DNA of 64,000 bases from Cerasicoccus sp. TK19100 (GTDB lineage Bacteria > Verrucomicrobiota > Verrucomicrobiia > Opitutales > Cerasicoccaceae): positions 1 to 64,000 of the forward strand of contig NZ_JAPWDU010000009.1 of NCBI RefSeq assembly GCF_027257155.1, in the 5' to 3' direction. This document shows positions 17,310-20,202 of the stretch, piece by piece. The notes under the pieces were generated by a model. It had not been told where the DNA came from. It was given only the letters and a program-made list of their open reading frames with translations, and ran no database searches. The stretch's first letter is position 1. Each line of letters starts with the position of its first letter. Position numbers and translations under genes: made by a program.

Positions 17310-18317
17310 ATGAGTGAATCGAGCCCCGCACCCGCCTCCGGAGAAACCGCCGTCGCCCGCGTCCACGAGATACGCGACCGACTCATGACTGAACTCCGCA
17401 AGGCCGTTGTCGGGCAAGACCAGGTAATCGAGGAGCTGGTCATCACGATGTTCGCCCGAGGGCACGCCCTGTTGACGGGAGTGCCCGGCCTCGGCAAGAC
17501 GCTCCTCGTTCGCAGCTTGGCGGAGTCGATGTCGTTGGCGTTCAAGCGCATCCAGTTTACGCCTGACCTCATGCCGGCCGACATTTTCGGCACGGAAGTC
17601 GTCGAGGAAGACCCCGTTACCGGCAAGCGCGCGTTCCGCTTCGTGAAAGGCCCGATCTTTGCCAACGTCGTGCTGGCGGACGAAATTAACCGCACACCGC
17701 CCAAGACTCAGGCCGCGCTGCTGGAGTCCATGGAAGAGCGCCAGGTGACCGCTGCAGGCGAAACCCACCCGCTCGCGCCGCCGTTTTTCGTGCTGGCCAC
17801 GCAGAACCCCATTGAGCTGGAGGGCACCTATCCGCTGCCCGAGGCGCAGCTCGACCGCTTTTTGCTCAACACCGTGCTCGACTACCTGCCCAAGGAAGAC
17901 GAGGTCAACATGGTCGCGACCACGACGTCGCCCGAGCGCAGTAAGCCCCAAGCCGTGCTGAACGGTCCGGAAATCGAGGAAATTCAAACACTGGTCCGCT
18001 CGGTGCCGGTCTCAACGGACGTGGTCCGCTACGCGGTAAACCTCGTCAGCGCGACCCGCCCGACACTCAAGGACGCCTCTTCGCTGGCCAAGGAAAAGAT
18101 CAAGTGGGGAGCGGGCAGCCGCGCCTCGCAGGCCCTCGTCCTCGCAGGCAAGGCCCGCGCGCTGATGGACGGTCGTTACAACGTCGCGGTAGAAGACATC
18201 AAGGCGCTGGCCAAACCGGTCCTCCGCCACCGCGTCATCCCGAGCTTCCACGCCGAAGCCGAAGGCGTCACCAGTGACCAGCTCATCGCCGAGCTGCTGA
18301 AAACCGTGGAGGGGTAG
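17310..18317 (+). CDS. MoxR family AAA+ ATPase
   Basis: This 335-residue MoxR-type AAA+ ATPase acts as a chaperone-like partner of von Willebrand factor A (VWA) proteins. Walker A is GVPGLGKT (57-64) and Walker B is VVLADEIN (Asp124, Glu125), followed by TPPKTQAALLESMEE and the ATQNPIELEGTYPLPEAQLDRF sensor region. It opens the MoxR-DUF58-BatA-DUF4175-like gene order typical of Bat/aerotolerance-type loci. The distance to the DUF58 gene has been enlarged by insertions at 18360-19303. Confidence 0.95.
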   Translation: MSESSPAPASGETAVARVHEIRDRLMTELRKAVVGQDQVIEELVITMFARGHALLTGVPGLGKTLLVRSLAESMSLAFKRIQFTPDLMPADIFGTEVVEEDPVTGKRAFRFVKGPIFANVVLADEINRTPPKTQAALLESMEERQVTAAGETHPLAPPFFVLATQNPIELEGTYPLPEAQLDRFLLNTVLDYLPKEDEVNMVATTTSPERSKPQAVLNGPEIEEIQTLVRSVPVSTDVVRYAVNLVSATRPTLKDASSLAKEKIKWGAGSRASQALVLAGKARALMDGRYNVAVEDIKALAKPVLRHRVIPSFHAEAEGVTSDQLIAELLKTVEG

Positions 18318-18359
18318 GCGAGATTGACGTGGGTTTTAACGGCAGAGAACGCAGATTAA

Positions 18360-18635
18360 ATGGATTGGAATACAATAGCATTTTTGGTCATTTTCTTCGG
18401 TGTTATTGCCTGTATTATAGCTTGTAGTAGGCCAAAAGGAGAGCGGCATAAAGTGTTTCTATTGGTCGGATGCGTGCTCTTGTTCTTTTTATCAGTCGCC
18501 CCTTTCTTTTTTCTGACTCAAGCGATACCCGCCAATTTCAAGCCTATCCTAGGTCCCTTATGCGGTGTTTTGTACATATTCATCATCTATCATTCCGGAA
18601 AAATTGCTCTGCGGTATCTAGCGAAAGCAAATTAA
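18360..18635 (+). CDS. Small AT-rich membrane protein, unknown
   Basis: This 91-residue protein has three hydrophobic segments: AFLVIFFGVIACIIAC, VFLLVGCVLLFFLSVAPFFF and LCGVLYIFIIYH. It resembles no family I know. It is clearly AT-richer than the flanking moxR and DUF58 genes, and its ATG abuts a repeat-like ACGGCAGAGAACGCAG stretch (18339-18354). It may be an insertion into the operon gap rather than an original operon member. There is no obvious ribosome-binding site. Confidence 0.5.
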   Translation: MDWNTIAFLVIFFGVIACIIACSRPKGERHKVFLLVGCVLLFFLSVAPFFFLTQAIPANFKPILGPLCGVLYIFIIYHSGKIALRYLAKAN

Positions 18636-18689
18636 GATACCTATTCAAACTAGACTCCGTGCTCTCTGTGTCTCCGTGAGAAAATAATC

Positions 18690-18726
18690 CCATGCCCACC
18701 ACCGTTAAAGACCTCCTCGATCCCGC
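18690..18726 (+). repeat. 37-bp direct repeat, upstream copy (fossil DUF58 start)
   Basis: This copy is identical to 19304-19340, which contains the start codon and first eleven codons of the DUF58 gene. Here the reading (ATG at 18692) gives MPTTVKDLLDP, then diverges and stops after 15 codons. It marks the left boundary of the inserted toxin-antitoxin segment (18727-19303). Just upstream lies a CTCTCTGTGTCTCCGTGAG text (about 18660-18680). Confidence 0.9.
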
Positions 18727-18770
18727 TATCTGCCATTGAAATTTCCTAAAAACCGAACATCCTATTACCT

Positions 18771-18977
18771 ATGACCACAGCAGAAATCAAATCGATGGAC
18801 CAGGCCGAGCGTCTGCGCTTGATGGAGGAACTTTGGGACGCGATTTGCCACGATGTTGCCGAGCCGCCATCGCCAGCTTGGCACAGCGAGATTTTGGCCG
18901 AGCGCCGAAAGAAAATTGAATCCGGTGAGGCTGAATTTCTGACGATTGATGAAGCGTGGAACAGCCTGCGTAAATAA
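18771..18977 (+). CDS. Addiction-module antitoxin (Unstab_antitox type)
   Basis: This 68-residue protein fits the TIGR02574/PF09720 antitoxin family: an N-terminal QAERLRLMEELWDAI helix, a middle WHSEILAERRKKI segment and a C-terminal TIDEAWNSLRK. It would neutralise the toxin encoded next and may repress the pair. Its TAA stop shares a base with the toxin ATG (TAATG), a classic coupled arrangement. It sits inside the segment bounded by 37-bp direct repeats in the MoxR-Bat operon, and is AT-richer than the operon genes. Confidence 0.85.
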   Translation: MTTAEIKSMDQAERLRLMEELWDAICHDVAEPPSPAWHSEILAERRKKIESGEAEFLTIDEAWNSLRK

Positions 18978-19288
18978 TGTTACGAGAAGTTATTTTAATC
19001 TCTGAGGCTAGAGACGACTTGCGCCTTGGACGTGATTTTTATGATAGCCTTGATCTTGGTGTGGGTGAGTATTTCCTTTCCTCGCTGAAGTCTGAAGTAG
19101 AATCGCTTAAGCTTCACGCTGGCATTCATCCCATCATTTTCGGTTATTATCGATTGCTCGCGAAACGGTTTCCATTCGGTGTTTATTATGAGAATATGGA
19201 GAACCTCGTACGCATTGTAGCGATATTAGACCTGCGGCAAGATCCTGATACTATTCGAGCATCTCTTTCTGATCGCTCATCGCGCTAA
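18977..19288 (+). CDS. RelE/ParE-family toxin
   Basis: This 103-residue protein matches the RelE/ParE fold: an N-terminal VILISEARDDLRLGRDFYDSL strand and helix, a central HPIIFGYYRLLAKRFPFGVYY beta-strand region with basic residues, and a VRIVAILDLRQDP C-terminal strand. Partners of Unstab_antitox proteins are usually ParE-like (gyrase poisons) or RelE-like (mRNA cleavage); the sequence does not decide between them. It is translated through the TAATG overlap from the antitoxin. Confidence 0.85.
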   Translation: MLREVILISEARDDLRLGRDFYDSLDLGVGEYFLSSLKSEVESLKLHAGIHPIIFGYYRLLAKRFPFGVYYENMENLVRIVAILDLRQDPDTIRASLSDRSSR

Positions 19289-19303
19289 TTTTTCGCCTCC
19301 TCA

Positions 19304-19340
19304 CCATGCCCACCACCGTTAAAGACCTCCTCGATCCCGC
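19304..19340 (+). repeat. 37-bp direct repeat, downstream copy (functional DUF58 start)
   Basis: Identical to 18690-18726. It supplies the start codon of the intact DUF58 gene, so the gene was rebuilt when the toxin-antitoxin segment entered. Confidence 0.9.
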
Positions 19341-20202
19341 GCACCTGACGCAGATTGCCAATATGCAATTGCTCGCGCGGACCGCCGTGGAGGGCTTTCT
19401 CAGCGGGATGCACCGCAGTGTGTTTCACGGCTTTGGGACGGAGTTTCTGCAGTATCGGAATTACTCGCCGGGCGAGGATTTGAAATACCTCGACTGGAAG
19501 GTGCTCGCGCGCAGTGACCGCCTCTACACCAAGGTCTATCAGGAGGAGACGAACATGAACGTCACCGTCCTGCTGGACTGTTCCGGCTCGCTGGACTACG
19601 CGGGCGACCGCGCGCCGTGCTCGAAGTTTCGCTACGCTGCGATGATTGCCGCGTGCATCGCCTACCTGGCTGGACGCCAAGGCGACAACGTCGGCCTGTT
19701 CGCCTACAGTGACGAGCTGTTGGAAGCCGTCGAGCCCGGGCATCGCAGTGGGCAGCTGAGCCGCGTGATGCATTCGCTGGCGCGTCTCAAGCCACACGGT
19801 GCCGCCGCGCATCAGCGCACGCTGGACAACCTGACGCACCCCTTCAAGCACCGTGGCATCGTGGTGCTGATCTCCGACATGCTGGAGGCCGAGCACGAGC
19901 TGCCGCGCCTGTTGCGCAACTTCCGTTACCGCCACTGCGACGTGATTGCCCTGCAAGTCTTGGACCCCGATGAGCTCGATCTGCCGCAGCCCAAAGTGAC
20001 GCGCTTTCAGGACATCGAGGCGGGCAAGGAAGTCGTCGCCTGGCCGTCATCCGTGCGCGAACAATACACACGCCGCATGGATGAATTCCTCGCGACGCTC
20101 AAGACCGGCTTCTTCAAAAGCCAGGTCGATTACCTGCGCCTGCAAACCACCGACAGCCTCGGCCTCGCCCTCGCACAATACCTCCACCATCGAACTTTGT
20201 GA
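19306..20202 (+). CDS. DUF58 domain protein (MoxR-associated)
   Basis: This 298-residue protein has the DUF58 signature: a GFLSGMHRSVFHG opening, then FLQYRNYSPGEDLKYLDWKVLARSDRLYTKVY (read here as consecutive short motifs YSPGEDLKYLDWK and ARSDRLYTK) and a VWA-like core with LLDCSGSLDYA and VVLISDMLE. DUF58 proteins work with MoxR ATPases and BatA-type VWA proteins; the exact activity is unknown. Its first 37 bases are duplicated at 18690 on the far side of an inserted toxin-antitoxin pair. Its TGA stop lies in the loop of a CTTTG-N5-CAAAG dyad. Confidence 0.9.
   Translation: MPTTVKDLLDPAHLTQIANMQLLARTAVEGFLSGMHRSVFHGFGTEFLQYRNYSPGEDLKYLDWKVLARSDRLYTKVYQEETNMNVTVLLDCSGSLDYAGDRAPCSKFRYAAMIAACIAYLAGRQGDNVGLFAYSDELLEAVEPGHRSGQLSRVMHSLARLKPHGAAAHQRTLDNLTHPFKHRGIVVLISDMLEAEHELPRLLRNFRYRHCDVIALQVLDPDELDLPQPKVTRFQDIEAGKEVVAWPSSVREQYTRRMDEFLATLKTGFFKSQVDYLRLQTTDSLGLALAQYLHHRTL

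What the first reader, a model, noticed from the sequence alone, without database searches (positions are those of the whole stretch)
18690..19340. Toxin-antitoxin cassette bracketed by a 37-bp duplication that rebuilds the interrupted gene
The first 37 bases of the DUF58 gene, including its ATG, occur twice (18690-18726 and 19304-19340) with a roughly 577-base segment between. That segment carries an Unstab_antitox/RelE-ParE pair. The upstream copy is a 15-codon fossil and the downstream copy starts the intact gene. A 37-bp duplication is far longer than a normal transposase target duplication, so either a novel small mobile TA unit or a duplication-coupled insertion is likely.
Basis: partly seen in the sequence, partly recalled or inferred. 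Interest (0 to 1): 0.68.

Follow-up and report, generated by a model that had tools for sequence, protein, structure and literature searches.

The report
Toxin-antitoxin pair inserted with duplicated gene start
A tiny two-gene toxin-antitoxin unit has landed at the very start of a neighbouring gene and copied that start on the way in, so the gene stayed whole; the same pattern recurs at other toxin-antitoxin pairs and resembles a poorly understood kind of insertion known for restriction-modification genes.

Summary
A perfect 37-bp direct repeat (18690-18726, 19304-19340) brackets 577 bp that hold only an Unstab_antitox/ParE-fold operon. The three other genomes of the genus lack the pair and carry one copy, so this is an insertion with target duplication, and DUF58 is intact. 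A second genus has a decayed TA insertion at the same gene start with its own 70-bp duplication. Long direct repeats bracket 18 of 84 PF09720 loci (the window among them) against 6 of 500 random points. Over four TA sets they bracket 37 of 254 loci. In 12 of those 37 the duplicated DNA is the start or end of a host gene (hisC, release factor, dciA, hypB-like and others), with a junction within 12 nt of a start or stop codon; this sorting was done by eye. The insert is close to a bare TA operon, without terminal repeats. Published precedent: 'insertion with long target duplication' of restriction-modification genes. I file this as a toxin-antitoxin variant of that kind. How the duplication forms is not settled.

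The parts
17310..18317 (+). moxR AAA ATPase gene, upstream neighbour
   Evidence: PF07726 E 1.9e-62
18360..18635 (+). 91-aa hydrophobic ORF, the window's occupant of the moxR-DUF58 small-gene slot; not part of the TA insert
   Evidence: other small ORFs sit here in 3 of 3 congeners
18690..18726 (+). upstream (fossil) copy of the 37-bp target duplication
18692..18739 (+). 15-codon fossil ORF begun by the DUF58 start and running out in the insert
   Evidence: read
18727..19303 (+). 577-bp insert, 46% G+C against 59% in the flanks
18771..18977 (+). antitoxin, 68 aa, Unstab_antitox (PF09720)
   Evidence: above the curated cut-off
18977..19288 (+). toxin, 103 aa, ParE/RelE-type fold by prediction
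19304..19340 (+). downstream copy of the 37-bp duplication, start of the intact gene
19306..20202 (+). intact DUF58 gene, 298 aa; 90-98% identical to 3 congeners from residue 1

Best explanation
A type II toxin-antitoxin operon entered the moxR-DUF58 junction as a nearly bare unit (44 nt before the antitoxin ATG, 15 nt after the toxin stop) and the target was duplicated: the last 2 bases before the DUF58 ATG and the first 35 bases of the gene now stand on both sides. The downstream copy starts the working gene; the upstream copy is a fossil. Shown: an empty site in relatives, a single target copy there, an exact direct duplication here, a like architecture at 11 further TA loci (sorted by eye) and a decayed one at the same gene in another genus. 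Inferred: the duplication arose during repair or replication (two spaced nicks filled in, or template switching), not by a transposase with fixed geometry; and the TA was kept although recombination could delete it between the repeats, because cells that lose it are poisoned. That step would explain why TA pairs, like restriction-modification systems, are found in this form.
For: Empty single-copy site in 3 of 3 congeners. DUF58 is full length. G006: copies 66 of 70 identical, starting 3 nt before the ATG, the fossil fused in frame to an antitoxin remnant (PF09720 E 2.9e-4, below cut-off); this fossil matches none of 11 other DUF58 loci better than 38 of 70. Direct repeats bracket 18 of 84 PF09720 loci against 6 of 500 random points, Fisher p 8e-12; without the window itself 17 of 83, p 4e-11. 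12 of 37 repeat-positive TA loci duplicate a host gene terminus with a junction within 12 nt of a start or stop; 11 of the 12 genes have Pfam support. Toxin stop lies -2 to 20 nt from the right junction in 10 of 13 loci, antitoxin start 43-69 nt from the left in 9 of 13 (some starts read by eye). Repeat length in these 12 varies from 34 to 95 bp. No shared ends or terminal inverted repeats. Precedent for restriction-modification genes.
Against: The empty site is shown only for the window locus; attempts for L118, L037, L311 and L075 gave none. 25 of 37 repeat-positive TA loci are dispersed or intergenic repeats, attC-like repeats, a terminator, or unclassified, so the raw rates overstate target duplication. 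4 of 30 GxxExxY loci, not TA genes, also show bracketing repeats, of dispersed-repeat type by reading. PIN loci exceed random points only weakly (4 of 70, p 0.02). In this genome one repeat of gene ends without a TA exists: a 122-bp, 84% similarity of the C-terminal ends of two adjacent ORFs. Addiction was not tested. Junctions so close to gene ends are not explained by random nicks alone.
Confidence: 0.6

Rival explanations
1. Imported linkage: the TA sat beside the same gene in another strain, and a fragment or circle carrying TA plus the gene's terminal piece recombined at that homology, leaving a direct repeat.
For: A junction lies within 12 nt of a start or stop codon in all 13 gene-terminus cases, as if the TA had abutted the gene before. 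In several loci the copies differ by 5-19%, which foreign origin could explain.
Against: In the window both copies share ATGCCC where 3 of 3 congeners have ATGTCC. In G006 the fossil is 66 of 70 identical to its own gene and at most 38 of 70 to 11 other loci. It also needs an earlier placement with no explanation.
Confidence: 0.2
2. Site-specific recombination: the 37 bp is an attL/attR core of an integrase-driven element, integron cassette or Xer-type module of which only the TA remains.
For: Integrative elements often end in gene termini and restore the gene (established knowledge, recalled). attC-like repeats, judged by eye, flank some TA loci in the same survey (L096, L133, L381).
Against: The insert has room only for the two TA genes. 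Repeat sequence and length differ between the 13 loci compared and the insert ends share nothing. The exact 37-mer occurs in no viral contig scanned, and the region matches no phage record.
Confidence: 0.1
3. RNA-mediated insertion: the TA transcript was copied into DNA at a nicked target, which would give variable target duplications and an insert running from a 5' end near the antitoxin to just after the toxin stop.
For: Regular insert ends and variable duplication length.
Against: The first 43-69 nt may be the promoter. No tail was seen, and no reverse transcriptase was looked for or is implicated by any search.
Confidence: 0.05
4. The repeat predates the TA or is an assembly artefact.
For: None found.
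Against: Single copy in 3 of 3 congeners; long contig (159,538 bp); like architecture in other genomes.
Confidence: 0.02

Closest known systems
Insertion with long target duplication of restriction-modification genes (Nobusato et al. 2000; seen only as cited in passages of PMC1643837, PMC3874152, PMC3031569, PMC2654758, PMC4978471)
   Same: A compact addiction-type module absent from related genomes; long, variable direct duplication of the target ('in the order of 100 bp', PMC3874152 passage); I saw no settled mechanism in the passages
   Different: The cargo is a type II toxin-antitoxin operon; duplications here are 34-95 bp; a junction lies at the start or stop codon of a host gene. Whether that rule also holds for restriction-modification genes I could not check (original not read).
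Integron gene cassettes with toxin-antitoxin pairs
   Same: Whole TA operons in small cassettes (PMC2654758 passage), bracketed by repeats
   Different: Integron repeats are attC sites (recalled); here the repeat is a piece of the host gene at that site
Integrative elements in gene ends (tyrosine integrase att sites; recalled)
   Same: Direct repeat that restores the target gene
   Different: No integrase, no common attachment sequence, insert below 1 kb
ParDE/RelBE type II toxin-antitoxin systems
   Same: Overlapping antitoxin-toxin operon; PF09720 antitoxin; ParE fold by prediction
   Different: Toxin is below the Pfam ParE cut-off; the 9 homologues aligned are 38-50% identical

Membership tests
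Insertion with long target duplication | Related genome has the empty site with one copy of the target | tested here: met
   3 of 3 congeners; not shown for the other TA loci
Insertion with long target duplication | Target duplication much longer than transposase duplications, and variable between cases | tested here: met
   37 bp in the window; 34-95 bp over the 12 gene-terminus cases, 70 bp in G006
Insertion with long target duplication | Cargo is a restriction-modification gene set, as in the published cases | tested here: not met
   Cargo is a toxin-antitoxin pair; hence filed as a variant
Insertion with long target duplication | No transposase in the insert and no terminal inverted repeats (my criterion, not taken from the original paper) | tested here: met
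Integron cassette | Bracketing repeat is an attC site with conserved ends | tested here: not met
   By reading only: the 37-mer is the DUF58 gene start and lacks the attC end motifs as I recall them; no attC model was run
Type II toxin-antitoxin system (ParDE/RelBE superfamily) | Antitoxin of a known addiction family next to a toxin of ParE/RelE fold, in one operon | tested here: met
   PF09720 above cut-off; predicted ParE fold, Z 13.2; genes overlap by 1 nt
Type II toxin-antitoxin system (ParDE/RelBE superfamily) | Toxin harms growth and the antitoxin neutralises it | not testable with these tools
   needs expression in a laboratory strain

The most novel reading that the evidence does not exclude
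Minimal toxin-antitoxin operons are mobile in their own right: they are delivered by a specific, so far undescribed route that places them at the start or stop codon of host genes, often core genes such as a release factor gene, dciA, nuoN-type, hisC/hisB or hypB-like genes, and copies the last 34-95 bp of that gene so that it survives. Addiction then locks in a repeat-flanked insertion that recombination would otherwise erase.
Probability: 0.2. Interest if true: 0.82.

Novelty: new variant of a known kind. Interest (0 to 1): 0.52.

Why it matters
How type II toxin-antitoxin pairs move when no transposon, plasmid or phage carries them is an old open question. A recurrent scar (bare TA operon, duplicated gene terminus, gene left intact) would give that question a measurable signature. 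It would tie TA pairs to the unexplained insertion mode of restriction-modification genes and suggest a common cause: addiction stabilises repeat-flanked insertions of any origin. It also gives a simple rule for finding recent TA arrivals in genomes.

Tried and rejected
Tried without gain: close relatives of the toxin in viral contigs (0), two distant ones in genome contigs (47% identity), phage records (no match), plasmids (2 Leptolyngbya records at 30% identity), PDB by sequence (nothing convincing), PADLOC (0). Promoter and terminator scan around the insert: nothing above shuffles. Shared motifs or terminal inverted repeats of 13 inserts: no k-mer above shuffles, longest terminal inverted match 6 nt. 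Empty sites for L118 and L037: not obtained. Orthologues of the L311 and L075 host genes in 0.92 Mb of the window's genome: none found.

Considered and rejected: pre-existing repeat; ordinary short transposase duplication (37 bp is too long). Random-control hits look, by reading, mostly like repeats inside proteins. Of the 25 repeat-positive TA loci outside the gene-terminus class, I judged by eye as repeat elements or attC-like: L087, L096, L101, L106, L133, L141, L148, L340, L359, L364, L366, L375, L381; L118 duplicates a terminator; unclassified: L093, L131, L132, L134, L223, L286, L330, L331, L338, L349, L408. L073 and L091 also carry bracketing repeats but lie outside the tight test; a looser test gave 22 of 84 against 22 of 520. 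The PF09720, PF05016 and PF01850 sets were not checked against each other for the same TA pair counted twice.

Full report
OBSERVATION. The two 37-bp copies at 18690-18726 and 19304-19340 are identical. They contain 2 bases before the DUF58 start codon and the first 35 bases of the gene (19306-20202). Between them lie 577 bp with two ORFs that overlap by one base: 18771-18977, Unstab_antitox PF09720 (E 5.5e-15), and 18977-19288. The second has only a sub-threshold ParE_toxin match (E 0.048). A model built on an alignment of ten toxins, the window's included (pLDDT 92), matches ParE toxins in the PDB (Foldseek E 7.2e-5; Z 13.2 over 87 residues, rmsd 1.6). The insert has 46% G+C against 59% in the flanks.

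EMPTY SITE. The three other genomes held from the same genus carry moxR and DUF58 side by side. DUF58 is 90-98% identical and the spacer is 460-470 bp in each. Each has one copy of the 37-mer (1, 1 and 3 mismatches) and no TA. All three read ATGTCC where both window copies read ATGCCC. The window copies thus share a base that the congeners lack, as expected if the duplication was made from the resident gene.

SECOND EVENT AT THE SAME GENE. In G006, another genus of the family, the DUF58 start is also duplicated: 66 of 70 bases identical, starting 3 nt before the ATG. The start is set by homology; the longest ORF opens further upstream. The upstream copy is fused in frame to the C-terminal part of an Unstab_antitox protein (E 2.9e-4, just under cut-off). 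I saw no toxin-like ORF in the list, but did not scan those ORFs. The duplicated stretch reaches further into the gene than in the window, and is unlike the DUF58 start of 11 other loci (at most 38 of 70), so I take the two events as independent. Gene conversion within one ancient duplication is not excluded.

SURVEY. I compared 1 kb upstream with 1 kb downstream of each locus (blastn, same strand, E <= 1e-5, at least 80% identity, at most 1 kb between the copies). PF09720 loci of the order: 18 of 84 (84 of the 95 matches; the window is one of the 18; flanks cut by contig ends in 16). Random points in 20 stretches of 20 kb: 6 of 500. Fisher p 8e-12, or 4e-11 without the window. PF01850 (PIN): 2 of 30 and 2 of 40, 70 loci out of a capped list; p 0.02 against random points. 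PF05016 (ParE): 4 of 30, p 0.001. PF09720 in the wider phylum: 8 of 30 and 3 of 40, 70 loci out of a capped list. PF13366 (GxxExxY, not TA): 4 of 30, by reading all dispersed or hairpin repeats. A looser first version gave 22 of 84 against 22 of 520. In 924 kb of the window's genome, about 18%, the 37-bp pair and four others passed the filter. Two of the four lie inside one 1936-aa ORF, one in two neighbouring ORFs, and one (122 bp, 84%) in the C-terminal ends of two adjacent ORFs, a gene-end repeat without a TA.

WHAT IS DUPLICATED. Of the 37 repeat-positive TA loci (254 tested), 12 duplicate a host gene terminus: L037, L074 (the window), L075, L099, L104, L146, L206, L307, L311, L342, L344, L351. 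G006 makes 13. Pfam names: aminotransferase next to imidazoleglycerol-phosphate dehydratase, read as hisC/hisB (L037); NADH-quinone oxidoreductase/antiporter, read as nuoN type (L104); release factor with PCRF and RF-1 domains (L311); glyoxalase II type (L342); CobW/HypB/UreG type (L344); aminotransferase (L206); DciA (L307); FtsX/MacB permease (L351); periplasmic-binding/LacI-like (L146); alpha/beta hydrolase (L075); DUF58. L099 has no significant family. L118 duplicates what reads as a hairpin terminator beside a threonyl-tRNA synthetase type gene. In all 13 a repeat edge that meets the insert lies within 12 nt of a start or stop codon. In L037 this holds for the hisC end; the hisB start lies at the other edge of its copy. 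In L099 and in hisC of L037 the insert supplies the last codons. In L351 an upstream in-frame ATG makes the start uncertain. The remaining 25 loci, including L118, are repeat elements, attC-like by eye, or unclassified (listed under Tried and rejected). I sorted them knowing the hypothesis; a blinded repeat is needed.

THE INSERT. In 13 loci with measured junctions (the 12 plus L118), the toxin stop lies -2 to 20 nt from the right junction in 10, and the antitoxin start 43-69 nt from the left junction in 9 (starts of L104, L118 and L311 read by eye). So the moving unit is close to a bare operon. The ends share no motif above shuffles and no terminal inverted match above 6 nt. Repeat lengths of the 12 run from 34 to 95 bp.

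HOW IT MOST LIKELY WORKS. Shown: insertion, target duplication and intact gene at the window locus; recurrence of the architecture. Inferred: (a) the duplication comes from repair or replication, either fill-in of two spaced nicks or template switching, because its length varies and no transposase geometry fits; (b) insertions that fail to rebuild the gene are lost; (c) repeat-flanked insertions are normally removed by recombination, but loss of a TA is punished, so TA insertions remain. Point (b) alone does not explain junctions within 12 nt of gene ends; this is the main loose end and the basis of the novel case.

COMPARISON WITH THE KNOWN. 'Insertion with long target duplication' was proposed from two Helicobacter pylori genomes for restriction-modification genes (Nobusato et al. 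2000, not read; known here from passages in PMC1643837, PMC3874152, PMC3031569, PMC2654758 and PMC4978471). [quoted passage not shown] in the passages seen it says this of restriction-modification units, not TA pairs. Searches listed no paper whose title or opening abstract reports a TA insertion with long duplication; some lists were capped, I did not read the papers listed beyond those named, and most subscription journals are not held. Of PMC2701414 I saw passages on TA mobility. I recall one study of chromosomal TA acquisition in E. coli (Ramisetty and Santhosh) that discusses altered flanking genes; I did not see it. Furuta et al. 2010 is not held.

VERDICT. A real, clean insertion, of a kind known for restriction-modification genes, here with a toxin-antitoxin pair and an unexplained closeness to gene ends.

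Noticed in passing
window 18318-18689; L003 1040-1500; L004 1030-1500; L005 1033-1500; L009 2920-3400; L006 2389-2546: The moxR-DUF58 spacer is a hotspot of exchangeable small genes between inverted CACGGAGACACAGAG-type repeats: GxxExxY (PF13366) in G001 and G002, a 108-aa unknown ORF in G003, hydrophobic ORFs in the window and G006, an inverted repeat without a recognised gene in G004. Arms: 41 nt at 98% in G003, 20-21 nt at 95% in G001 and G002, 38 nt at 82% in G006, only 13 nt at 77% in the window.
   Followed up: partly
L190, L191, L195 (GxxExxY loci of other genomes): GxxExxY genes lie between two direct copies of a longer repeat (about 100-390 bp) that contains CTCCGTG/CACGGAG or similar hairpin sequence, as if the hairpin element were a cassette boundary. 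Only 2 papers in the library hold the word GxxExxY.
   Followed up: no
L096, L133 (family f24) and L381: TA pairs between 116-126-bp direct repeats that look like integron attC sites by eye; no integrase was sought.
   Followed up: no
L034 176-785 (G002:C29): 357-bp tandem repeat a few hundred bases from a homologous TA pair in a congener.
   Followed up: no
L118 2364-2402 and 3067-3106: The duplicated DNA at this TA insertion reads as a hairpin terminator next to a threonyl-tRNA synthetase type gene, so both flanking genes could keep a terminator.
   Followed up: partly
L231 818-939 and 1471-1592 (window's genome): The C-terminal ends of two adjacent ORFs are 84% alike over 122 bp, with a similar hydrophobic tail in both (PEP-CTERM-like, recalled); a gene-end repeat without a TA.
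   Followed up: partly
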